DNA of 64,000 nt from Gammaproteobacteria bacterium (GCA_021731365.1 JAKFXL010000016.1:1-64000), one strand, 5' to 3'; positions 4,118 through 42,555 are shown, counted from the first letter of the stretch. The notes: a model not told the origin generated them from the sequence alone. Made by a program: numbers and translations.

Positions 4118-4685
4118 TATTAGCGATAGAGTAGTCATTGCTGAAACGCGTCAGTGGGTAAATGATATTGTTATCCGCCACAATCTCTGTCCCTTTGCCC
4201 ACAAACCCTTTCGTAATGAGTTGATCCGCTATGCGGTTTCGCACGCTAACAGTGATAACGAGTTGGTCAATGACCTGATTGATGAGCTGTTGTTGTTGCG
4301 TGACGCCGATGTCAGCAAGATTGAAACCACTATTCTTATTGTTCCTAACTGCCTTAACCAATTTGATAGTTACAACAAGTTTCTTGATGTGGCCGATATG
4401 CTTGTCACCCAGTTTGGTTTGAATGGCACGATTCAGATAGCCAGTTTTCATCCGGATTACCAGTTTGCCGATCTTGATTGTGAGGATGTACGTAACTATA
4501 CCAACCGTTCACTCTATCCCATGTTTCATTTGATCTTGGAGGAGGCCGTTGAACGGGCTAGAAACAGCCATCCGGATGTTGATTCAATACCTGTGGCGAA
4601 TATGAATCTGTTGCAAACAATTGGGTTGGATGAGATAAAAAGACAGCAACAGATGTGCAAAATAGAAGAGGTTGAAAATGAGTAA
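4110..4685 (+). CDS. DUF1415 family protein
   Basis: This encodes 191 residues with the DUF1415 pattern: 'TRQWVNDIVIRHNLCPFA' at the N-terminus, 'ETTILIVPNCLNQFDSYN' and 'IQIASFHPDYQFAD' in the middle, and 'TNRSLYPMFHLI' towards the C-terminus. It is cytoplasmic. The family function is unknown. The start codon overlaps the stop of the MOSC gene, and its own stop overlaps the HNH gene start, so the genes form one transcription unit. Confidence 0.8.
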   Translation: MNSISDRVVIAETRQWVNDIVIRHNLCPFAHKPFRNELIRYAVSHANSDNELVNDLIDELLLLRDADVSKIETTILIVPNCLNQFDSYNKFLDVADMLVTQFGLNGTIQIASFHPDYQFADLDCEDVRNYTNRSLYPMFHLILEEAVERARNSHPDVDSIPVANMNLLQTIGLDEIKRQQQMCKIEEVENE

Positions 4686-5028
4686 AAAACTAGATGATAT
4701 TGTTGCTCAAACGCACCGTAATCGTGATCAACGTGAACAGGGGTATCGTGAAAAATCACTAAAAATGTATCCGTGGATCTGTGGTCGTTGTACACGTGAA
4801 TTTACCCGTGCCAACTTGCAAGAGCTGACTGTGCACCATCGTGACCATAATCACGATAATAATCCGGAAGATGGTAGTAACTGGGAGCTGCTCTGTATTT
4901 ACTGTCATGACAATGAACACTCCCGCTATATCGACAATGTTGGCACACGTGATAAAAAAACCAAAGCAGCTAGCGCCAGCCATAATCCATTTGCCGATTT
5001 AGCAGCGATGCTTAAAAACAAGGAGTAG
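4678..5028 (+). CDS. YajD-like HNH nuclease family protein
   Basis: This encodes 116 residues from the ATG at 4678, which overlaps the DUF1415 stop by 8 bases. A zinc-binding HNH module is visible: 'CGRCTREF' supplies the first CxxC, 'LTVHHRDHNHDNNPEDGSNW' is the catalytic His-rich core with its Asn, and 'LLCIYCHDNEHS' supplies the second CxxC and final histidines. It matches E. coli YajD in size and layout. Cellular role is unknown; a DNA nuclease activity is inferred from the family. Confidence 0.8.
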   Translation: MSKKLDDIVAQTHRNRDQREQGYREKSLKMYPWICGRCTREFTRANLQELTVHHRDHNHDNNPEDGSNWELLCIYCHDNEHSRYIDNVGTRDKKTKAASASHNPFADLAAMLKNKE

Positions 5029-5131
5029 CAAAATCCATTGTCATTGACAAAGCAATAACCGTGTCCTAATTTCGAGGGGCCATATACATTTTGATGTATG
5101 GGCGTTCATGAAAGCAACCAAGGAGCCGGTG

Positions 5132-5815
5132 ATGAGAAATGTGACATTGATACTGTTTTTTGCTTTATCCATAATGGGGCTGCACAGCCCCGTATATGCC
5201 AGTCCATTAGCTGATATGAAGATGATGTATGTAGACAACAGGGATGGTACATACACATATTTCTTTATCATAAAAAACCTCGACCAGCCTATGGGGACTG
5301 AGTTTTCGACACCCCCTAACCATATGATTTTTAATAGGCAGTCTCAGAGCATGGTGCCAGCAGGTGGAAAAAATCTGAGTGAAGATGAAAACATTGTTCT
5401 TTTTGGTATTGACACCCAAAGTGATGATGTAGAGGTTACATCTATTACCAATGCCCGTACCGCATTTAGCGGGTCAGTGGAGGAGGGGTTTACTGACACG
5501 GATGCTGACGGTGTGTTTAACCGTGTCATTGGTTGGCATCTACCCTTTGATGGGTTTTCATTGAGTGACACCATACCAACAGAAAAGATGGCAGGCATAT
5601 TCTCGTTTACTCTGAATAGAGATATGAATCACTTTGTTTACTGGGTTGGCGGTAGTGATGATGCCAAGATATGGAATGTTGGCAATGTTATGCTTGAAGA
5701 TAATTACGGCATATATGATGCGTCGATTGGTGAGTATCTGGCGACTTTTATGACGCGTAAGGTACATGCAGTAAAAATAAACAATAGAAATCGGGTGAAG
5801 GATCTGAACTTTTAA
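5132..5815 (+). CDS. Exported hypothetical protein
   Basis: This encodes 227 residues. The start at 5132 is chosen because AAGGAG lies 7 bases upstream; a longer frame from 5108 lacks such a site. The N-terminus 'MRNVTLILFFALSIMGLHS' is a Sec signal, probably cleaved after 'VYA'. The mature protein is beta-rich and acidic, with 'DNRDGTYTYFFIIKNLDQPMG' and 'FTDTDADGVFNRVIGWHLPF' (a possible calcium-binding Asp cluster). No family was recognised. A terminator-like hairpin follows directly, so it is probably a single-gene unit. Confidence 0.6.
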   Translation: MRNVTLILFFALSIMGLHSPVYASPLADMKMMYVDNRDGTYTYFFIIKNLDQPMGTEFSTPPNHMIFNRQSQSMVPAGGKNLSEDENIVLFGIDTQSDDVEVTSITNARTAFSGSVEEGFTDTDADGVFNRVIGWHLPFDGFSLSDTIPTEKMAGIFSFTLNRDMNHFVYWVGGSDDAKIWNVGNVMLEDNYGIYDASIGEYLATFMTRKVHAVKINNRNRVKDLNF

Positions 5816-5839
5816 TCCGGGTTTTTAGGGTGGCATGTC

Positions 5840-5875
5840 AGGCTCTGCCACGACCGGTGGCTGAGCCTCTGTTTT
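5840..5875 (+). terminator. Rho-independent terminator after exported protein gene
   Basis: A 12-base stem with one T-T mismatch (5840-5851 with 5857-5868) and a 5-base loop is followed by a short T-rich run (5871-5875). It lies 25 bases after the stop at 5815 and faces a convergent gene on the other strand. Confidence 0.6.
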
Positions 5876-5894
5876 ACATCTTTATATAGCGGCG

Positions 5895-6647
5895 CTACTT
5901 TTTTACCATATGATCAGCCCATTCGGGCAGCTCTGTGAAAAAGATATGAAACCCGGCCGAAAAACTTCCAAAGTTCAGTCCATACTGTTTTGCAAGCAGT
6001 GTGAGACTACTTCTTGAAAAGAGGCTGATATGGCCATTGCGCGGCGAGGCATACCACCAGTTGATCCTGCTGTTTTTTTGAATGTTGCCGTCAGTCAGCA
6101 GTGTGGAAAAAAGTATTATCCCCTTGGCAGCGAGCAGGGTTTTTAGATTTGACATGAGTTGTTTGACATCAGAAACGTGTTCAAAGACCTCGAATGCTGT
6201 TATGAGGTCAAATTTCCCAATGGTATTAATATCCGCCTCAGTGTTCGTAAATGGGTCGTAAGAGGTGGATTTCCAGTTGGACTCATTGAGCAGTCGGGAT
6301 AGATGGCCGTTGCCACCACCATAATCCAGATGTTTAATGCCATAAGCACGATTCCCGAAACTATTGATTAAGTTTTCAGAGTTTTGGCGGGGTCTGGTTT
6401 CGATATAGTCTGGGTCTACACGAACATATGTGTCGTTATAAATATGTTCTTTAAACTGCTCCATGCTCCAGCTTAAAAGCTCAGGTGCAAAGCAGAAGCC
6501 GCAGTTATTGCAGAGTGAATAATAGACAGGGGTGCCGGATATATCCAGAAACTCTCCGTTTGCCTCCATGCACGATTTGTTGAAATCCACGACATCAAGC
6601 AAAGGACTCGATCCGCCACATACAGGGCAGTCACAGATGTTATTCAT
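5895..6647 (-). CDS. SAM-dependent methyltransferase with N-terminal zinc-ribbon
   Basis: This encodes about 250 residues from the ATG at 6647. An in-frame extension to 6728 exists but looks like non-coding sequence. Two CxxC pairs near the N-terminus ('CDCPVCGGS' and 'LCNNCGFCF') form a zinc-ribbon-like module, as in several sugar or lipid C-methyltransferases. The SAM-binding motif is 'LDYGGGNGHLSRLL'. 'FDLITAFEVFEHVSDV' is the motif II/III region typical of the Methyltransf_23 family. The substrate is unknown, and no glycan or polyketide genes lie nearby. Confidence 0.75.
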   Translation of the reverse strand: MNNICDCPVCGGSSPLLDVVDFNKSCMEANGEFLDISGTPVYYSLCNNCGFCFAPELLSWSMEQFKEHIYNDTYVRVDPDYIETRPRQNSENLINSFGNRAYGIKHLDYGGGNGHLSRLLNESNWKSTSYDPFTNTEADINTIGKFDLITAFEVFEHVSDVKQLMSNLKTLLAAKGIILFSTLLTDGNIQKNSRINWWYASPRNGHISLFSRSSLTLLAKQYGLNFGSFSAGFHIFFTELPEWADHMVKK

Positions 6648-6844
6648 AATTACTAGTCTCTGAGTGGCTATAGTAGGGTAATAACTGATTTTTATTACGC
6701 TATGTTGATTTGTGTTGATGTGGTCCATTGTATGGGGTTGTGATAAGGATGTCTAAAAACTTTGGCGCATATCAGCCCGCAAACTGCTCTCTTCCATAAT
6801 CCCCGTGTATCTGTGTCTATAATGGGATGGCTGGATCATATGCC

Positions 6845-6878
6845 TTGATGGCAGTACCATTATCTGGGTGCCATCAAT
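6845..6878. repeat. Perfect 9-bp inverted repeat upstream of DUF2934 gene
   Basis: TTGATGGCA (6845-6853) and TGCCATCAA (6870-6878 region) form perfect arms around a 15-16-base spacer, about 80 bases before the DUF2934 start. It could be an operator or an RNA hairpin; nothing else in the 300-base gap from 6648 to 6956 was recognised. Confidence 0.35.
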
Positions 6879-6956
6879 CAGCTGTGAAATACGTTGAAGG
6901 TTATAGTGTGACTGCTTTAATTAATCATGATCTATTTAAAAAGAGGAATCAAAGCA

Positions 6957-7634
6957 ATGAGCAAACATAGTCAAGATGAAAAACTGGCCTCTGGGAACTC
7001 AACAACATATTTAAAAACGGCTTTAGAGCAGATGTTGGCTGCTGGTCGTAATGTACGTGAGTTTGGTGACTTTGCGCTGGAGAAATTTGGTGACACGATT
7101 ACACCCTATTTACATGAATTTTCAGAAGATATTAGTAGAGGGCGTATTAAGGTAGAGGGTTTGGGAAAAGCGGCAAAAAAAACCATTCTTGGTGCCCATG
7201 TTGATCTGGATGAGCGTGAAAAAATGATACGGGAGGCGGCCTACTTGCGCGCGGAACGTCGCGGCTTTTCAGGGGGGTCAGCTGTTGAGGATTGGCACAT
7301 GGCTGAACAGGAGATTGATCAACGGTTGGCCAAGGCATCAGGTCTGATTGGAAAAGGGCATAAGGCCCTGTCTTCGGCAGGGGGCATGATTGAACATGAG
7401 TTGGATGATATAAGGCATATCGTTGCTGGTTGGCTGGATGATACAAGTGGCAATGAAAAACATAAAAAATCTGTTCAAAATAAAAAAACCGCTGTTGATA
7501 AACAAGTACAGGCAGAGCCTGTTAAGCAGGCCATGAAAAGTCCAAAAAAAGAAGCGCCTAAAAAAACCACGGCCAAGGTGAAAACAGTGGGCGGTAAAAA
7601 AACGACAACCAAAAGGGCGGCAAAGAAGACATAA
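6957..7634 (+). CDS. DUF2934 protein with histone H1-like basic tail
   Basis: This encodes 225 residues from the ATG at 6957, which has AGAGGA about 9 bases upstream. Residues about 90-125 hold a DUF2934 motif ('IREAAYLRAERRGFSGG' then 'DWHMAEQEIDQRL'). The last 60 residues are lysine-, alanine- and proline-rich ('KKEAPKKTTAKVKTVGGKK', 'TTTKRAAKKT'), like histone H1-type or AlgP-type tails that bind DNA or polyanions. The N-terminal part is helical. The role is unknown; nucleoid or stress association is inferred from the tail. Confidence 0.7.
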   Translation: MSKHSQDEKLASGNSTTYLKTALEQMLAAGRNVREFGDFALEKFGDTITPYLHEFSEDISRGRIKVEGLGKAAKKTILGAHVDLDEREKMIREAAYLRAERRGFSGGSAVEDWHMAEQEIDQRLAKASGLIGKGHKALSSAGGMIEHELDDIRHIVAGWLDDTSGNEKHKKSVQNKKTAVDKQVQAEPVKQAMKSPKKEAPKKTTAKVKTVGGKKTTTKRAAKKT

Positions 7635-7827
7635 AATATTTGCTTGCTCTATTTTCTGTTAGCCCTTTGTTACCGGTTAAATAGTCGCTGCTGGAAGAGT
7701 TTAAGCTTGCCTGATGATTGCCGGGTGAAAGGGCAGCAGAGGGATCTGTTGGGATGGTGTGTCAGATGTTTCTGGTTATATTAGGGGGTATGGCTGGCAC
7801 AAAAACCCCACCAATTCCCCGCCTGTT

Positions 7828-8991
7828 TTAATACCAGACGGACATATAAACCTGCACTATATTGGCGGAGAAACCATAAGGACTGGGCGTGGGGTTACGC
7901 AAGTCGCTAAAATCATCATACTGATAACGCATGTGATCGATGCTGAAATTTAATGTGCCTTTATCAAACATGCGCCACCCCTGTGGTATCACGTTGTAAC
8001 TGATGTTAAGTCCGATGGTCTGACTGTTGTAGCTGCTGAGTTCTTTGTCGCGGGCCATGTAGTTTTGTGGGGCAAAGGGGTCAAAAAAATCCTGGTAAAA
8101 ATTGGCACGGTTTTGTCTGTAGTGGCGATAGTGGCTGCCAACAATCCAGTTGTCGCGGTAGGTGTGGGTGTAGCCAATATCCAGTGTATTGGCGCTAACG
8201 CCCCAGGTATCACCATAAAAGCGGTAGCTGCCGTGTAGTGCGGCACGGTGGGGGAGATAGTAGTTGGCGCTAAGAGCGATGGCATGGCTGGAGCGGGTGT
8301 TGGGATAGACCTCACTCAGCGTTGAGCCATCACTAAAACGCACGGTGCGATAGGGGTTGTTGAGATAGCCTGAGTCAGTGATGAGTTCGTAGTTGAGATT
8401 GGTGACCAGGTTTTTACTGATAATCTGACTGGCACCAAGGCGAAATTTTTGGCGGTCTGCCTCTTTTTCAAAGCTGGGGTCACGGTCGAAGCCAGCGTTG
8501 GTATTCACTGTTTTATAGATTGCATCCCATCCCTTTGAGTAGCCCATGTAGAGGGTGGTGAGATCACCAAACATATCCTGGCTAATATTGAAGTTGGCAC
8601 TGTTGGCAACAAAGTCATTCTCTTTGCTGTTGCTGTAATTGAGGCTCAGGGTGCTTTTGTCGCGCAGATAGGTGGTGCCGACGCTGTACTCTTCACGTTT
8701 TTCTGTATATCGACTGGCAGAGGTAACGACGTCGATGGAGGCGCTGCTGATGGCGTCAACATAATATTTGGCAGAGAGTGATGTGTGATTGCCAATCTGT
8801 TTGCTGGCTTGTAGTGCGGGACCTTGTACCGTGATGCCGCCACCATTGTAGTAGTGAAACAGTGCGTCAATGCGCTCGTCTGGCAAAATGGCAGCAGTGA
8901 GCGGCAGTGCTGCAGCCATGAAGAGGGTGCCAGCGAGCATCCAGATTAGTTTGATTTGCCCCTGTCCTGACTGGTTGATGTTGTGTTGCAC
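7828..8991 (-). CDS. DUF3570 outer-membrane beta-barrel protein
   Basis: This encodes 387 residues from a GTG at 8991 that has AGTAGAG 8 bases upstream. A longer frame to 9117 would run through the DUF4266 gene. The N-terminal hydrophobic segment 'LIWMLAGTLFMAAALPLTAA' is a signal peptide. The rest is a run of alternating aromatic beta strands ending in 'QVYMSVWY', the aromatic terminus typical of outer-membrane barrels. 'FHYYNGGGITVQGPAL' and 'SLSAKYYVDAISSASIDVVTSAS' are DUF3570 hallmarks. It follows DUF4266 and TlpA in the order usual for this family, though the ApbE flavinyltransferase often found with them is absent here. Confidence 0.8.
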   Translation of the reverse strand: MQHNINQSGQGQIKLIWMLAGTLFMAAALPLTAAILPDERIDALFHYYNGGGITVQGPALQASKQIGNHTSLSAKYYVDAISSASIDVVTSASRYTEKREEYSVGTTYLRDKSTLSLNYSNSKENDFVANSANFNISQDMFGDLTTLYMGYSKGWDAIYKTVNTNAGFDRDPSFEKEADRQKFRLGASQIISKNLVTNLNYELITDSGYLNNPYRTVRFSDGSTLSEVYPNTRSSHAIALSANYYLPHRAALHGSYRFYGDTWGVSANTLDIGYTHTYRDNWIVGSHYRHYRQNRANFYQDFFDPFAPQNYMARDKELSSYNSQTIGLNISYNVIPQGWRMFDKGTLNFSIDHMRYQYDDFSDLRNPTPSPYGFSANIVQVYMSVWY

Positions 8992-35550: not shown

Positions 35551-37863
35551 TTGGCACAGGCAAGACGAAAAAAGGATGCAGCGGGTGGGTTGGGTCGTCC
35601 AGCGCGCTTGGTTAAAGGGATGCGCGGTTTACGTGAAGGGGCGCTATTCCTGTTTGGCGCAGTAGCACTCTACCTGATGATCTCGCTGGGCAGTTATGAA
35701 CCGACCGATCCGGGCTGGTCACACAGTGGTCATGTCAATGAGATTGCCAACAGCGGCGGTGTGGTGGGGGCCTGGTTTGCGGACGTAGGGCTGCACCTGT
35801 TTGGGTACTTCTCTTATCTAATACCTATTATGGTTGCTTACAGCGGCTGGTTGATATTCCACGATCGTAAGTCTGAAGAGACGGTCACCTCCGCAGAGTT
35901 TGTACTGAGGTTTGGCGGCTTTGTGCTGACTGTCATGGCCGGGTGTGGATTGGCCGCACTCCATTTTCAGGCCCCGCTGGGGTTGCCACTGACGCCGGGG
36001 GGAATACTGGGCGGGGTGGTGAGTGACTCCCTGGAAGAGCCGTTCAGTTTTGTGGGGGCCACTTTATTCATGCTGGCGCTTTTCCTGACGGGCGTGACAC
36101 TCTTTACCGGACTCTCCTGGTTGTGGTTGATGGATGTGACCGGGCGCTGGAGTCTGGAGTTTGCGGCGCTGGTACGCAGCTGGTTTGGTGGGCTGCGTGA
36201 GTGGCTGGCGGCGCGGCAGATGCGCCATGAACGTTCGGTAGCCCTGCAGGCTGATACTAAAAAGCAGGAAAAACGGTTGCCACCACGCATCGAACCGGTG
36301 ATCAAAAAGGTTGAGGTGAGTAAACGTGTAGAGCAGGAGCGTCAGCAGCCACTCTTTTTGACCGACGAAGATAAGAGGAGGGGGTTACCACCCCTGGTGC
36401 TACTGGATCGGGCGGTACATACCGGCAAAGGTTTTTCGGTGGAGGCGTTGGAGGCGCTCTCACGTCTGGTGGAGATTAAATTTAAGGATTTTGGTATTGA
36501 GGTTGAAGTGGTGGAGGTTCACCCCGGCCCGGTCATTACCCGGTTTGAGATGCAGCCTGGTGTAGGTGTTAAGGTCAGCCAGATCAGCAATCTCTCCAAA
36601 GATCTGGCCCGTTCACTCTCGGCTATCAGTGTGCGGGTGGTGGAGATCATCCCCGGCAAAACCACGGTGGGTCTGGAGATCCCCAACGAACATCGCGAGA
36701 CGGTACGCCTGAGTGAGATCCTGCAATCGAAGCAGTATGACGAGGCACACTCGCCGCTGACCCTGGCGCTGGGCAAGGATATCTCCGGCCAGCCGCTGGT
36801 GGCCGATCTGGCCAAGATGCCCCATCTGCTGGTGGCGGGTACCACCGGTTCCGGTAAGTCGGTGGGTATCAACGCCATGATCCTGAGCATGCTCTACAAG
36901 GCCACTGCCGAAGAGGTACGCATGATCATGATCGACCCCAAGATGCTGGAGCTATCTATTTACGAAGGCATCCCCCATCTGTTGACGCCGGTGGTTACCG
37001 ATATGAAAAACGCCGCTAACGCCCTGCGCTGGTGTGTGGTGGAGATGGATCGCCGCTACCGGCTGATGGCCCATGTGGGGGTACGAAATCTGAGCAGCTA
37101 CAACAAAAAAATAAAGGAGGCGCTGGAGAGTGGCGAGCCGATTCGTGACCCCTTTATTGAGATGATGTCACCGGACGAGATCCGTCCGCCGCTGCGGCCG
37201 TTGCCACACATCGTGGTGATTGTGGATGAGCTGGCTGACATGATGATGGTCGTCGGCAAAAAGGTGGAGGAGCTGATCGCCCGGCTGGCGCAGAAGGCCC
37301 GTGCCTCCGGCATCCACCTGGTGCTGGCAACACAACGCCCCTCGGTGGATGTATTGACCGGTCTGATCAAGGCCAACATCCCGACCCGTATCGCCTTCCA
37401 GGTCTCATCGAAGATCGACTCGCGCACCATTCTTGATCAGGCCGGCGCTGAGTCGCTGCTCGGTCACGGTGATATGCTCTATCAACCCTCCGGCACCAAT
37501 GTGCCAACCCGGGTACACGGTGCCTTTGTGGCCGACCACGAGGTACATAAGGTGGTCGATGCCCTGAAACAGCTCGGCACCCCGGAATATATCGACGAGA
37601 TCCTCGATGGTCCAAGTACCGATGGTGATGGCATGGGTGGTGGTTTTGATGGCAGCGATGAGGCCGACGAGCTTTATGATCAAGCGGTCAGGATCGTCAC
37701 TGAATCGCGCCGCGCCTCGGTCTCGGGCATTCAGCGGCGGCTTAAAATCGGCTACAATCGCGCCGCCCGCATGGTGGAAGATATGGAACGTGCTGGTGTG
37801 GTCAGCCCGATGCAGTCAAACGGCAACCGCGAAGTGTTGGCGCCACCCCCTCCCAAGGATTGA
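35551..37863 (+). CDS. ftsK: DNA translocase FtsK
   Basis: This encodes 770 residues from a TTG start with AAAAAAGG upstream. FtsK links division to chromosome dimer resolution and XerCD-dif recombination. Four N-terminal membrane helices lie within the first ~180 residues ('[18 protein letters not shown]', '[18 protein letters not shown]'). A short linker precedes the motor, which has Walker A '[16 protein letters not shown]' and Walker B '[16 protein letters not shown]'. The C-terminal gamma winged helix reads '[20 protein letters not shown]'. lolA normally follows directly, but here two unrelated genes intervene. Confidence 0.97.
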
Positions 37864-37865
37864 TT

Positions 37866-37940
37866 ATGAATACTTCTTTAAATCCGTTGAAGTTACGTTA
37901 TTCACGAGAACATATACAACGGGATGTGTTTCATGCTTGA
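37866..37940 (+). CDS. Possible short leader peptide or remnant
   Basis: A 24-codon frame starts 2 bases after the ftsK stop. Its stop (TGA 37938-37940) overlaps the likely ATG (37933) of the next gene by 8 bases in another frame, an arrangement seen in translationally coupled genes. The peptide is basic, with no recognised motif. It might be a leader for the inserted module or debris at the insertion joint. Confidence 0.3.
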   Translation: MNTSLNPLKLRYSREHIQRDVFHA

Positions 37941-40590
37941 GCAATACACTAAAGCCAAATTTTGGAAGTGTGCTCTACAAGTTAACCCAGCGGGTTACAT
38001 CGCCTATCGTGGTGGTGATCACGGAATGACGGAAGCGCAGTACAATCAGGAACTGGTGCGCATCGCCAAGGAAAACGAGATCAAGGTTATCGGACTGGCG
38101 GATCACGGCAATGTCGATGGGGTGGATGCTATTCGCACTGCCATGAATGCGAATGGCATCCTGGTGTTTCCAGGTTTTGAGATTTGTTCTACCGAAAAAG
38201 CACATTTCGTGTGCCTCTTCCCAGAAAATACCTCCAAAGATCAACTAAATCGTTATCTGGGTGCACTGGGGCTCACTGATCCGGCGGATGGAGTTTGGCC
38301 GTCCAATCTTGGCGGCAATGATCTGCTTTCAAAAGTAGAAGAATTGGGTGGCTTCACATACGCGGCTCACAGTACAGATGATAAAGGAGCGTTGAGGCAA
38401 AAGCTGAGCCATGTTTGGCAAAACCCTTTGCTTAAAGCGGCGCAAATCCCCAGCGTAATTGACGACCTAAAAAATGATGAGGGTAACAGTTATCGACTAA
38501 TCCTCCAAAACAAGACACCGGAATACAAACGCGAGCAGCCGGTTGCCATCATTAATGCCAAGGATGTTGAAAAACCGGAAACACTAGCGAATCCGAAAGC
38601 ATCCTGTTTGATTAAAATGACCAGACCATCTTTTGAATCTTTCAAGCTGGCGTTCCAAGATCCGGAATCACGGGTGCGTTTGAATAGTGACATCTCCGAA
38701 AAATACTATTCTCGTATCGAAAGCCTGAAAATCACGGGCGGCTATCTGGATGGCGTTCAAATTGATTTCTCCGAACATCTGAATGCAGTGATTGGTGGAC
38801 GAGGAACAGGGAAAACGACGCTGCTTGAGTGCATTCGCTATGCCTTGCAATTGAAGCCGCTTGGTAAAGATGCACAAAAAAAACACGATGAAATCATCAA
38901 AGAAAATCTGGGAAAATCCAAGGCTCGCATAGAGATGGTGATCCGTTCCTCTCAAATGAATGGCAAACGTTTTACCGTCGCCCGGCGTTATGGTGAAAGT
39001 GCCAGCGTGAAGGACGAGAGCGGCAACCTATCGACATTTGCGCCGATTGACTTGTTGCCGAGAATTGAAATTTACGGACAGAGCGAGATATACGAAATTG
39101 CCCAGGACAAAACCAGTCAGCGGCAATTGTTGACACGATTTCTGGAAGATGGTCAACAGGACGGTGAAGCACGTATTCAGGAATCGCTAAGCAAGTTGGC
39201 GGAGAACAGAAGGAAGTTGATCGAGGCACAAGCTGCTGTAGCTTCAATTGAAGATGAGGTCGCGCTGCTTCCGAAGCTAGAAGAGCAGGTAGGCCAATTC
39301 GAAGTGCTTGGGCTGGAAGATAAGCTTAAAATAGTGCCGCTACTAGAGACGGAAAAACGCATGCAGAAAAGGGCAATAGGGGAAGAATGCCTAAATCTTG
39401 ATAATGCTTTCCAGGCCGTGCGCGACAGCCTGCCCGATACAGTATTCCTTAGTGACTCAGCCATTGGCCACCTTCCTCATGCCGAAAGCCTGCGCAAGAT
39501 GCGTGCCGCATTGGATGCGTTCCGTGGGGATGCCGAAGCATTACTAAGTCAGTGGCAACAAAAATATGTCACTGCGAAAGCCACGCTTGCATCAATTGCT
39601 CAGGTACTGGATGCAGGGATACAACAGGAAGAGTTGGCGCTGGAAACAACTTTCAAGGAGTTGCCAGCCTCTGAAGGAAAAACGGGCAAGGAAATCGGTC
39701 TTGAGTTCCAGCGGTTATTAAAAGAAATTGAGCGGATTCGACCAAAGAAAACGATGATTGATAACCGTGCCAATGTCGTAACCGAGCTATCCAGGCAACG
39801 TAATGCCATCCTTGATGGTTTGTCATCGACCCGCGCGGATCGATCCGCACAGTTTGAACGATCACTGAAGAAATTGAATAAGCAACTTTCAGGAAAACTG
39901 AAATTGACTGTTAAACCTGAAGCTGATCGTGCCCCGGTGATTCAATTCCTGCTGGGCTGCAAACTGGAAAACGTTGGCGAGAGTAGACTTTCCTGGGTAC
40001 GGGAGGCAGACGATTTTTCGCCTGTTAAATTAGCCGAGATGGTGCGACAAGGCGCAGATGCGTTGCGCAATGCCAGTTGGGGGATTACGCCTACTGTAGC
40101 CGATGCACTGCCGCGCCTCACAACAGATCAAGTTCTTCAACTGGAAGAGATTGAATTGCCTGACTTGATCAGTATTGAGTTGAATACGGCTCATGAGGGA
40201 GCGGAAGTTTTTAGGGCACTGGATAAATTATCCACTGGTCAGCAATGCACAGCGATTTTGCATTTGCTACTTCTGAAGAATCTTGATCCATTGCTGATGG
40301 ATCAGCCGGAAGATAATCTGGACAACGCTTTTATTGCGGATCGCATTGTGACGGAATTAAGGTCGGCAAAAATAGCCCGCCAATTTATCTTTGCAACGCA
40401 TAACGCAAATATACCGGTGTTTGGTGATGCCGAATGGATCGGCGTTTTTGAGGTGCAAGAAGGTCAATCGAAAATGCCTGCGGAATCGCAAGGTGCCATT
40501 GATGTAACACAAATTCGGGATAAAGCCGCCAATATTCTTGAAGGCGGAAAGATTGCTTTCAATCAGCGTAAAGCCAAATACGGATACTGA
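37933..40590 (+). CDS. TrlF-like protein: degenerate PHP domain fused to SMC/AAA-type ATPase
   Basis: This encodes about 885 residues (an ATG at 37924 is also possible). The first ~250 residues resemble a PHP phosphoesterase domain ('VIGLADHGNVDGVDAI', 'VFPGFEIC', 'GGFTYAAHS'). The first metal motif (HxH) is not seen: the equivalent position reads 'KCALQVNPAGY'. The ATPase has Walker A 'VIGGRGTGKTTLLECIRYAL' at about 285-300, a long coiled coil (~400-650), a signature 'LSTGQQCTAI' near 768, Walker B 'LLMDQPEDNLDN' near 790 and an H-loop 'FATHNANIPV'. TrlF-type PHP-ATPases (for example Ppl-like) are candidate phage-defence proteins. The gene is AT-richer than its neighbours and interrupts the ftsK-lolA pair. 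Confidence 0.8.
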   Translation: MLEQYTKAKFWKCALQVNPAGYIAYRGGDHGMTEAQYNQELVRIAKENEIKVIGLADHGNVDGVDAIRTAMNANGILVFPGFEICSTEKAHFVCLFPENTSKDQLNRYLGALGLTDPADGVWPSNLGGNDLLSKVEELGGFTYAAHSTDDKGALRQKLSHVWQNPLLKAAQIPSVIDDLKNDEGNSYRLILQNKTPEYKREQPVAIINAKDVEKPETLANPKASCLIKMTRPSFESFKLAFQDPESRVRLNSDISEKYYSRIESLKITGGYLDGVQIDFSEHLNAVIGGRGTGKTTLLECIRYALQLKPLGKDAQKKHDEIIKENLGKSKARIEMVIRSSQMNGKRFTVARRYGESASVKDESGNLSTFAPIDLLPRIEIYGQSEIYEIAQDKTSQRQLLTRFLEDGQQDGEARIQESLSKLAENRRKLIEAQAAVASIEDEVALLPKLEEQVGQFEVLGLEDKLKIVPLLETEKRMQKRAIGEECLNLDNAFQAVRDSLPDTVFLSDSAIGHLPHAESLRKMRAALDAFRGDAEALLSQWQQKYVTAKATLASIAQVLDAGIQQEELALETTFKELPASEGKTGKEIGLEFQRLLKEIERIRPKKTMIDNRANVVTELSRQRNAILDGLSSTRADRSAQFERSLKKLNKQLSGKLKLTVKPEADRAPVIQFLLGCKLENVGESRLSWVREADDFSPVKLAEMVRQGADALRNASWGITPTVADALPRLTTDQVLQLEEIELPDLISIELNTAHEGAEVFRALDKLSTGQQCTAILHLLLLKNLDPLLMDQPEDNLDNAFIADRIVTELRSAKIARQFIFATHNANIPVFGDAEWIGVFEVQEGQSKMPAESQGAIDVTQIRDKAANILEGGKIAFNQRKAKYGY

Positions 40591-40598
40591 GGCCAGCC

Positions 40599-41837
40599 AT
40601 GTTAAAAGCTGAATTATTGGAAATCATCGCTAACGGTGAAAGTTCCGGAGTGGAGTTTAAGCGTGATGATATTCGTCCAGAACAGTTGGCCAAAGAAATA
40701 GTCGCACTGGTAAACCTTCAGGGTGGCAGGTTGATCCTCGGCGTTGAGGATGATGGAACAATATCAGGGCTCCAACAAAAAAATACTCAGGAATGGGTTC
40801 TGAATGTGTTTCGTGACAAAGTTTTTCCCCAAATTATCCCTTTTTATGAGGAGATAAAAATTGATGATCAGCAGCAAGTTGCTGTCATTACGATGGCGCC
40901 CGGCATTTCCAAACCTTACATGTTGAAACATAACAGTCGTGAAGAGATTTACATCCGTATGGGGGATCGTTCAGAACTAGCTTCCCGAGAACAACAGTTG
41001 CGGCTTTTTGAAAGCGGAGGACTACTGCATGTTGAAGTTCTTCCTGTGGCGGGGACATCTTTGGCTAATCTTGACCTGGAGAGATTGAATTACTACCTAT
41101 CGAGCATAATAAAGGACCCTGATGTTCCCACGCTGGGCTCAGGGTGGGAGGAGCGTTTATTGGGTCTTGGTCTGATGGCTTCCGATGGGCTGGGGAATAC
41201 GGTTTGCTCAGTGGCCGGGTTGATCTGTTTCGGAATCAATCCACGGCGATTTCTTCGGCAAGCAGGATTGCGCGTAATGGCCTTTGCCGGGGCAGAAAAA
41301 GAGTATCAAGCTTTGCTGGATATAGTGTTGGATGCGCCGCTAGTTGGGCGGTGGACAGTCAACGAGACAGGGAGGAAACAGTTGGTCGATGAAGGTCTGA
41401 TTGAAAAATTCGCGGCAGCCATAGGTCCTTTTATTACACAAGAGGCGGCTGATATTGATGAACATATGCGCCGAGAGAAGATAGATTTTTATCCTTGGGA
41501 AGCAGTTCGCGAAACAGTTATAAATGCCCTGGCACATCGTGACTGGACCAGGGCGGTAGACATAGAAGTAACCAATTATTCGAACCGATTAGAAGTTATC
41601 AGTCCCGGAAAACTTCAAAATTCTATGACCATTAGCAAAATGATCGCAGGACAACGATCACCACGCAACACACTTATTATGGAAATCCTTCGTGATTATG
41701 CCTATGTTGATTCACGAGGCATGGGGGTTCGAACCAAGGTTATTCCGCTGATGAGAAAGTTTAATCAGGCTGAGCCAATATTTGAAGCAACGGAAGATTA
41801 TGTGAAGACCATTTTGCCCAGAGCCGAGAGGGTGTAA
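40599..41837 (+). CDS. Schlafen AlbA_2 domain protein with ATP-binding domain
   Basis: This encodes 412 residues. The N-terminal Schlafen/AlbA_2 domain reads 'ESSGVEFKRDDIRPEQLAKE' then 'GGRLILGVEDDGTISGL' (residues ~14-57). 'REEIYIRMGDRSELASREQ' closes the domain. The C-terminal half is a GHKL-like ATP-binding region ('PWEAVRETVINALAHRDW' and 'SRGMGVRTKVIPLMR'), as in ATP-dependent DNA-helicase-related transcriptional regulators. It starts 8 bases after the TrlF-like gene, so the two form a cassette. Such proteins often sit in defence islands; a nucleic-acid-binding or nuclease role is inferred. Confidence 0.8.
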   Translation: MLKAELLEIIANGESSGVEFKRDDIRPEQLAKEIVALVNLQGGRLILGVEDDGTISGLQQKNTQEWVLNVFRDKVFPQIIPFYEEIKIDDQQQVAVITMAPGISKPYMLKHNSREEIYIRMGDRSELASREQQLRLFESGGLLHVEVLPVAGTSLANLDLERLNYYLSSIIKDPDVPTLGSGWEERLLGLGLMASDGLGNTVCSVAGLICFGINPRRFLRQAGLRVMAFAGAEKEYQALLDIVLDAPLVGRWTVNETGRKQLVDEGLIEKFAAAIGPFITQEAADIDEHMRREKIDFYPWEAVRETVINALAHRDWTRAVDIEVTNYSNRLEVISPGKLQNSMTISKMIAGQRSPRNTLIMEILRDYAYVDSRGMGVRTKVIPLMRKFNQAEPIFEATEDYVKTILPRAERV

Positions 41838-41916
41838 TGATCGTTTCAGTAACTATGTGTAAAGGCTTGGGGCGCGTTGCCCTTGCGGCTTGATCGATTT
41901 TATATAAGGTGTTTGC

Positions 41917-42555
41917 ATGTCTTTGAAAAAACTATTTAGCTGTTTTACTGTTGCGGTTTTGGCGTTTGCGCTTATGCCACTGGTCCATGCCGAAGGTGAG
42001 GCGGAGCTCAACGCGCTCTTCAGCTACAAAACCCTGAAGGCTGATTTTACCCAGGAGATTCTGGATCAGCAGCGCAATGTGCAGCAGCAGATGCGTGGTC
42101 GTTTGGTGATCCAGCGTCCCGGCAAGTTTCGCTGGAACTATCAGGCACCTTACGAGCAGGAGATTGTTGCCGACGGCAAAAAGGTCTGGCTCTATGATGT
42201 TGACCTGGAACAGGTAACCGTTAAATCTCAGGATCAGGCACTGGCTGGATCTCCCGCGTCACTGCTGAGCACCCAGAGCAAGCTGGAGAGTGAGTTCAAG
42301 ATCCGCATGGTGCAGCGCAACGATGGTTTGCAGTGGTTTGAGCTGACACCCAAGGCAAAGGAGAGTGGTTTTGAACACATCCTGCTCGGGCTTAAACAGA
42401 AACAGCTCTATCGCCTGGAGATTAAAGATGGATTTGGCCAACAGACTGATATTCAGTTTGATAATGTTCAGACCAACAGCGTCGTATCTGCCGATACCTT
42501 TGCCTTCACCATTCCCAAAGGGGTGGATGTCATCGATGAGACGGCCAAGAGGTAA
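41917..42555 (+). CDS. lolA: Outer-membrane lipoprotein carrier protein LolA
   Basis: This encodes 212 residues. LolA carries lipoproteins from LolCDE to LolB across the periplasm. The Sec signal '[20 protein letters not shown]' is followed by the LolA core ('[20 protein letters not shown]', '[19 protein letters not shown]', '[13 protein letters not shown]'). Its stop overlaps the rarA start (TAATG). It normally follows ftsK directly; the insertion at 37.9-41.8 kb separates them, so it may now depend on its own promoter in the 79-base gap before it. Confidence 0.93.

What the first reader, a model, noticed from the sequence alone, without database searches (positions are those of the whole stretch)
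37864..41837. PHP-ATPase plus Schlafen pair inserted into the ftsK-lolA operon
Seen: ftsK and lolA-rarA-crcB-serS are in their usual order except for a 4-kb, AT-richer, two-gene unit between ftsK and lolA. Known: TrlF/Ppl-like PHP-ATPases and Schlafen AlbA_2 proteins recur in defence islands. Inference: the pair is a compact two-gene defence system, perhaps with the ATPase as sensor and the Schlafen protein as nucleic-acid effector. This combination may be undescribed.
Basis: partly seen in the sequence, partly recalled or inferred. Interest (0 to 1): 0.8.

Follow-up and report, generated by a model that had tools for sequence, protein, structure and literature searches.

The report
TrlF–TrlG (Schlafen) defence pair insertion
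Two foreign genes inserted between core bacterial genes form a known, widely shared pair, a DNA-sensing-type ATPase and a Schlafen-like putative RNA-cutting enzyme, best explained as a growth-arrest or phage-defence module; it is a new member of a described kind, not a new system.

Summary
A 4-kb, low-GC, two-gene unit (37864–41916) separates ftsK from lolA. All ten held relatives in the family have ftsK and lolA abutting with no insert. Gene 1 is a TrlF-family PHP/SMC-like ATPase; gene 2 is a SLFN_AlbA_2 + HATPase_c_4 protein.

"Undescribed" fails. The same order and architecture is the trlF–trlG core of the Temperature Restricting Locus of Photorhabdus (PMC7554251), where mutations in the Schlafen-like gene relieve growth arrest. 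A 2026 BREX survey already lists Schlafen RNases as backup effectors.

New here: in two samples, 26 of 45 genomes with a TrlF over cut-off have the Schlafen gene immediately downstream. The two trees are strongly congruent (r=0.97; 23 of 30 splits). In the class sample, 9 of 13 pair loci lie in or beside BREX, type I R-M or other methyltransferase loci; the window copy stands alone. The window's TrlF clade has lost the PHP metal-binding HxH (now QxN), while the Schlafen catalytic residues are intact.

Best reading: TrlF is a Ppl/Lamassu-like DNA-state sensor and restrainer; TrlG is a Schlafen RNase effector, giving abortive infection or growth arrest. Function is inferred, not tested.

The parts
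35551..37863 (+). ftsK, left flank (host core gene)
   Evidence: ORF; 77–85% identical FtsK directly followed by lolA in the relatives
37864..37923 (+). Short leader between ftsK and trlF; about 33 bases before the trlF start resemble the leader of the 91% relative L003; no trlR gene here
   Evidence: Sequence compared by eye; no promoter match in it
37924..40590 (+). trlF, TrlF-family PHP/SMC-like ABC ATPase, 888 aa (alternative start 37933)
   Evidence: NF045780 548 bits, cut-off 350; dN/dS 0.10–0.18 against L003
37978..37986 (+). Degenerate PHP motif I: Q19-V-N21 where PHP enzymes have HxH
   Evidence: Alignment of 33 TrlF N-termini and tree
38794..38817 (+). Walker A GGRGTGKT, residues 291–298
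   Evidence: Motif search
40222..40401 (+). ABC signature KLSTGQ (768–773), Walker B and D-loop LLMDQPEDNLD (790–800), H-loop FATH (823–826)
   Evidence: Motif search
40599..41837 (+). trlG-like gene, SLFN_AlbA_2 + HATPase_c_4, 412 aa
   Evidence: Pfam matches over cut-off
40638..40982 (+). SLFN_AlbA_2 domain, residues 14–128, with candidate catalytic E14, E19 and D51
   Evidence: residue conservation; SLFN13 residues
41559..41813 (+). HATPase_c_4 domain, residues 321–405
41838..41916 (+). Spacer to lolA; no terminator match
41917..42555 (+). lolA, right flank (host core gene)
   Evidence: ORF; abuts ftsK in all ten relatives

Best explanation
The unit is a stand-alone TrlF–TrlG module acquired horizontally. 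TrlG is a Schlafen-type ribonuclease effector, probably cutting tRNA or another translation RNA, whose activity causes growth arrest or abortive infection. TrlF is its partner: an SMC/Rad50-like ABC ATPase that senses DNA state (ends or structures made during phage replication, or disturbed restriction) and controls TrlG, most likely by holding it inactive until triggered, in the way Lamassu LmuB and PARIS AriA control their nucleases. In the window's clade the PHP domain has lost two metal ligands, so TrlF is more likely a sensor than a nuclease. Shown: identity, insertion, pair conservation, co-evolution, frequent defence context, residue states. Inferred: RNase activity, sensing, sequestration, phage defence.
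For: Family matches over cut-off. Schlafen gene immediately downstream in 11 of 19 and 17 of 28 genomes with TrlF over cut-off. Trees congruent: Mantel r=0.97, 23 of 30 splits. In or beside BREX, type I R-M or other methyltransferase loci in 9 of 13 class-sample loci and on annotated plasmids. TrlF model matches Smc, JetA, Lamassu LmuB and Rad50. Schlafen E14/E19/D51 match SLFN13 catalytic residues. HxH replaced by QxN in the window clade. In Photorhabdus, trlG mutations relieve growth arrest. Empty site in ten relatives.
Against: No phage or biochemical test exists in the papers read. No trlF mutants relieved the arrest in Photorhabdus, so TrlF may not activate TrlG. Intact Schlafen relatives without TrlF (L058, L059) and a TrlF clade without Schlafen show each can exist alone. 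Most phylum-sample loci (13 of 15) showed no clear methyltransferase system. The TrlG model was too poor to check its fold.
Confidence: 0.55

Rival explanations
1. A stress- or temperature-triggered growth-arrest (toxin–antitoxin-like) module, as named in Photorhabdus, with no specific role against phage.
For: Temperature-induced arrest by the TRL operon, reversed by trlG mutation or operon deletion (PMC7554251). Stand-alone copies in core operons, including the window.
Against: Repeated nesting in BREX, R-M and methyltransferase loci and patchy, mobile distribution are typical of defence.
Confidence: 0.2
2. TrlF is the nuclease effector, as in Ppl (a PHP exonuclease), and the Schlafen protein is only a regulator or accessory.
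For: TrlF is a relative of Ppl, described as a PHP 3'-5' exonuclease with an NTPase (PMC12904381). Distant paired TrlFs keep the HxH motif.
Against: The window's clade has QxN in place of HxH. The Schlafen catalytic residues are conserved. trlG, not trlF, mutations relieve arrest in Photorhabdus.
Confidence: 0.13
3. Backup guard of restriction: the module watches a BREX or R-M system and fires when a phage inhibitor blocks it, as PARIS does with Ocr.
For: Position inside BREX, type I R-M and DUF1156 loci; survey describes backup suicidal effectors in BREX.
Against: The window copy has no R-M beside it; its genome has one clear HsdM-type methylase on another contig and no PglZ over cut-off. Many pairs stand alone.
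Confidence: 0.1
4. A vertically inherited part of the ftsK–lolA operon with a housekeeping role.
For: It lies in the same orientation inside the operon.
Against: Absent at this site in all ten relatives. The 91% relative L003 sits after hemL and L004 after a nudix gene. GC differs.
Confidence: 0.02

Closest known systems
TRL, Temperature Restricting Locus (trlR–trlF–trlG) of Photorhabdus laumondii (PMC7554251)
   Same: Same two families side by side; TrlG has AlbA_2 at residues 14–128 and HATPase_c_4, as in the window. A Yersinia ruckeri plasmid locus of this layout is homologous along its length.
   Different: Only 25–27% identical to the Y. ruckeri plasmid pair; no trlR in the window; that clade keeps HxH in TrlF and has Q at Schlafen position 19. 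Temperature response unknown here.
Ppl, single-gene PHP–ATPase anti-phage protein
   Same: PHP-derived N-terminus plus ATPase; TrlF scores against Ppl models (117 bits PADLOC, 165 bits NCBIfam).
   Different: Far below the Ppl cut-off of 1000 bits; two genes, not one; PHP HxH lost in the window clade.
Schlafen RNases in BREX and related systems (PMC12839542; bacterial Schlafen preprint cited there)
   Different: The main text of the survey does not mention a PHP/TrlF partner; the window pair is outside any BREX locus.
Lamassu (LmuA/B/C) and PARIS (AriA/B)
   Same: ABC/SMC-type ATPase sensor paired with a nuclease effector; TrlF model matches LmuB structures.
   Different: Effector is a Schlafen protein, not LmuA or a Toprim nuclease; no LmuC gene; sequence similarity of TrlF to these models is weak.

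Membership tests
TrlF family AAA-like ATPase (NF045780) | Score over the curated cut-off of 350 bits along the whole protein | tested here: met
   548 bits, residues 11–887 against model 3–944 of 944
TrlF family AAA-like ATPase (NF045780) | Intact ABC ATPase motifs | tested here: met
   Walker A, signature, Walker B, H-loop present
PHP phosphoesterase | N-terminal HxH metal-binding motif | tested here: not met
   QxN in the window and its clade; Pfam PHP below cut-off
Schlafen AlbA_2 proteins | SLFN_AlbA_2 domain over Pfam cut-off | tested here: met
   76.3 bits, cut-off 25.3
Schlafen AlbA_2 proteins | Catalytic acidic residues as in SLFN13 (E, E, D) | tested here: met
   E14, E19, D51, matched to SLFN13 E205, E210, D248 by motif and spacing
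Schlafen AlbA_2 proteins | RNase activity | not testable with these tools
   Needs an assay
TRL locus (trlR–trlF–trlG) | trlF directly followed by trlG with AlbA_2 + HATPase_c_4 | tested here: met
TRL locus (trlR–trlF–trlG) | trlR regulator gene in the operon | tested here: not met
   No such gene between ftsK and trlF
TRL locus (trlR–trlF–trlG) | Temperature-induced growth arrest | not testable with these tools
   Needs an experiment
Ppl | NCBIfam Ppl score over 1000 bits; single gene | tested here: not met
   165 bits; two-gene unit
BREX or R-M accessory module | Encoded within a BREX or R-M locus | tested here: not met
   Window copy flanked by ftsK and lolA; met by relatives
Lamassu | LmuA nuclease + LmuB SMC + LmuC | tested here: not met
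   Only an LmuB-like fold in TrlF; no LmuA or LmuC hit among the two genes

The most novel reading that the evidence does not exclude
TrlF–TrlG is one portable sensor–RNase module that serves as backup effector inside BREX, type I R-M and DUF1156 systems and also works alone. The Photorhabdus temperature restriction would then be a misfiring defence module. In the window's clade TrlF has dropped its PHP nuclease activity and leaves killing to the Schlafen partner.
Probability: 0.35. Interest if true: 0.65.

Novelty: new member of a known kind. Interest (0 to 1): 0.42.

Why it matters
If right, it joins three literatures: a temperature-dependent growth-arrest locus, single-gene Ppl defence, and Schlafen RNases in BREX. 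It would also supply a cognate ATPase partner for many bacterial Schlafens. The stand-alone window copy, 4 kb and two genes, is a compact test object for how a DNA-sensing ATPase could control a Schlafen RNase.

Tried and rejected
A vertical or ftsK/lolA-linked origin was rejected: empty sites in ten relatives. Spread on phages was not supported: no relative confirmed in viral contigs and only 7 distant TrlF-like matches among phage records, none with the Schlafen gene in the three loci inspected. "PHP lost because the Schlafen took over as nuclease" was rejected as a strict rule: many HxH TrlFs are paired, and one QxN clade is unpaired. The 79-aa HTH gene before trlF in the family relative G005 is not detectably related to the 79-aa gene upstream of trlF on the Y. 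ruckeri plasmid, so no conserved trlR is claimed. The TrlG AlphaFold model (pLDDT 40) was discarded and not fold-searched. No transposon ends, promoter or terminator explain mobility or expression. Literature searches found no study of TrlF–Schlafen pairs against phage in the held library. [quoted passage not shown]

Full report
OBSERVATION. Between ftsK (35551–37863) and lolA (41917–42555) lie two same-strand ORFs of 888 and 412 aa separated by 8 bases. Their GC (0.46–0.475) and GC3 (0.43–0.47) are well below those of ftsK and rarA (0.58–0.60 and 0.67–0.69). Ten other genomes of the same family (the order holds only 11 here) all have ftsK running straight into lolA, with no insert. The pair is therefore an insertion in this lineage. 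Only one of those relatives (G005) carries a related TrlF (66%), on another contig and cut by its end.

IDENTITY. ORF 1 matches NCBIfam TrlF (NF045780) at 548 bits, cut-off 350. It matches Ppl only at 165 bits, cut-off 1000. It has an AAA_23 ATPase domain over cut-off, while its Pfam PHP match is below cut-off. Walker A, signature, Walker B and H-loop are intact. An AlphaFold model from 13 sequences was confident in the ATPase and coiled coil but poor in the PHP part (mean pLDDT 65). Its best PDB matches are Smc, JetA (Wadjet), Lamassu LmuB and Rad50. ORF 2 has SLFN_AlbA_2 at residues 14–128 and HATPase_c_4 at 321–405.

THE PAIR IS KNOWN. TrlF takes its name from the Temperature Restricting Locus of Photorhabdus laumondii: trlR, trlF and trlG between polA and dsbA (PMC7554251; that NCBI's family name derives from this locus is my inference). 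TrlG there has AlbA_2 at residues 14–128 and HATPase_c_4, and the majority of sequenced mutants that regain growth at 36–37 °C carry changes in trlG, none in trlF. The paper names a Yersinia ruckeri plasmid, pYR3, as carrying the operon. A Y. ruckeri plasmid locus of that layout is homologous to the window pair (TrlF 25%, E=3e-44; TrlG 27%, E=1e-37). Photorhabdus sequence itself was not available to me. A 2026 BREX survey reports Schlafen RNases fused to a minimal histidine kinase and wHTH near BREX and related loci in at least 1017 taxa, and calls such endoRNases backup suicidal effectors. Its main text does not mention PHP or TrlF.

HOW TIGHT IS THE PAIRING. In a class-wide sample of 369 genomes, 19 have a TrlF over cut-off, and 11 of these have the Schlafen gene immediately downstream on the same strand (G218 is counted although its TrlF is frameshifted). 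In a phylum sample of 397 genomes the figure is 17 of 28. Two genomes are shared, so 26 of 45 in all. The pairs include very divergent ones, such as IncC plasmids in E. coli and Klebsiella with TrlF 25.6% and Schlafen 29.5% identical to the window. Trees of the two proteins over 33 pairs agree strongly: Mantel r=0.97, none of 2000 permutations as high, 23 of 30 splits shared; within the window's own clade r=0.86, none of 2000. The two genes have travelled together for a long time.

CONTEXT. In the class sample, 9 of 13 pair loci lie in or beside defence methyltransferase systems. Four are BREX, one is type I R-M, three have a DUF1156/Hma-type methyltransferase and one another N6/N4 methylase. 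Two of the 13 have only a TrlF fragment. Labels rest on profile matches for some genes and on homology or reading of the sequence for others (PglZ in particular). Annotated plasmids show the same: the pair between hsdS and hsdR, between pglX and pglZ, and between hsdR and hsdS. The window, G150, G216 and several methanotroph relatives are stand-alone. In the wider-phylum sample only 2 of 15 further loci had clear defence methyltransferases (PglXI, MmeI), so nesting is common but far from universal. The close relative L003 (91% TrlF) sits after hemL and L004 after a nudix gene (names from reading the sequence). Similarity between window and L003 leaders fades about 33 bases above trlF. No integrase or transposon end was found.

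RESIDUES. PHP enzymes bind metal through an N-terminal HxH motif (established knowledge). Every TrlF with a complete N-terminus in one 23-row clade that includes the window has QxN there (CALQVN), while distant paired TrlFs keep DFHxHT. Other PHP positions remain. The unpaired QxN TrlFs form a single subclade nested among paired ones, which suggests one loss of the Schlafen partner. One of them lies next to a type IIG R-M gene, and another has a near-identical neighbour (L006, L008). In TrlG, E14 is invariant, E19 is E in 27 of 33, and D51 is D in 26 of 33. By motif and spacing these match the SLFN13 residues E205, E210 and D248 needed for tRNA cleavage (PMC5862951). The plasmid/TRL-type clade has Q at position 19. 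TrlF is under purifying selection (dN/dS 0.10–0.18 against L003); dS is saturated in the other comparisons, so TrlG could not be tested well.

MECHANISM. The most likely working is a two-part abortive-infection or growth-arrest module: TrlG is the RNase effector, and TrlF is a DNA-state sensor that restrains or releases it. Support comes from the SMC/LmuB-like fold of TrlF, the Ppl precedent (a PHP–NTPase with a dual trigger of 3'-OH ends and nucleotide depletion; PMC12904381), the Lamassu and PARIS precedents for ATPase-controlled nucleases, and the trlG suppressor genetics. That suppressors hit trlG and not the larger trlF argues that TrlF is not needed to switch TrlG on at high temperature; it may restrain TrlG or act on another trigger. 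Anti-phage activity of this pair was not shown in any paper read here.

VERDICT. The pair is a new, stand-alone member of a described module (TrlF–TrlG) with a degenerate PHP domain. It is not an undescribed combination.

Noticed in passing
L058, L059 (G202:C199:4503-5723, G066:C6:418036-419256): Intact Schlafen (TrlG-type, 59% identical) genes without a TrlF, both between a LysR-type regulator gene and a gene that looks like mnmC; G212 (L110) has a truncated copy near a similar gene.
   Followed up: partly
L005–L012, L014, L015, L019: A TrlF subclade (about 50% identical to the window) with QxN and no Schlafen gene downstream; L006 lies next to a type IIG R-M gene.
   Followed up: partly
L117 (Yersinia phage vB_YenM_42.18, 4989-7607): A Peduoviridae phage carries a distant TrlF-like gene between the replication gene gpA and the portal gene, where accessory genes sit, without a Schlafen partner.
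   Followed up: no
L002 (3702-4283 and 5890-6618): In a Caedimonas contig the Schlafen gene is split by inserted genes that look like a transposase insertion.
   Followed up: no
L122 (pMyNCGM535, 4379-8161): An IncC plasmid copy of the pair is broken into many short frames in both genes, decayed or poorly sequenced.
   Followed up: no
L027 (G005:C4): In a family relative, TrlF is preceded by an overlapping 79-aa XRE-type HTH gene, the same length as TrlR but with no detectable similarity to the 79-aa gene on the Y. ruckeri plasmid.
   Followed up: partly
L097 (12827-14011): In G052 a second, different AlbA_2-type gene follows the first inside a type I R-M locus.
   Followed up: no
L004: A contig labelled Synechococcaceae cyanobacterium carries a pair nested among gammaproteobacterial ones; probably a binning error in that MAG.
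   Followed up: no
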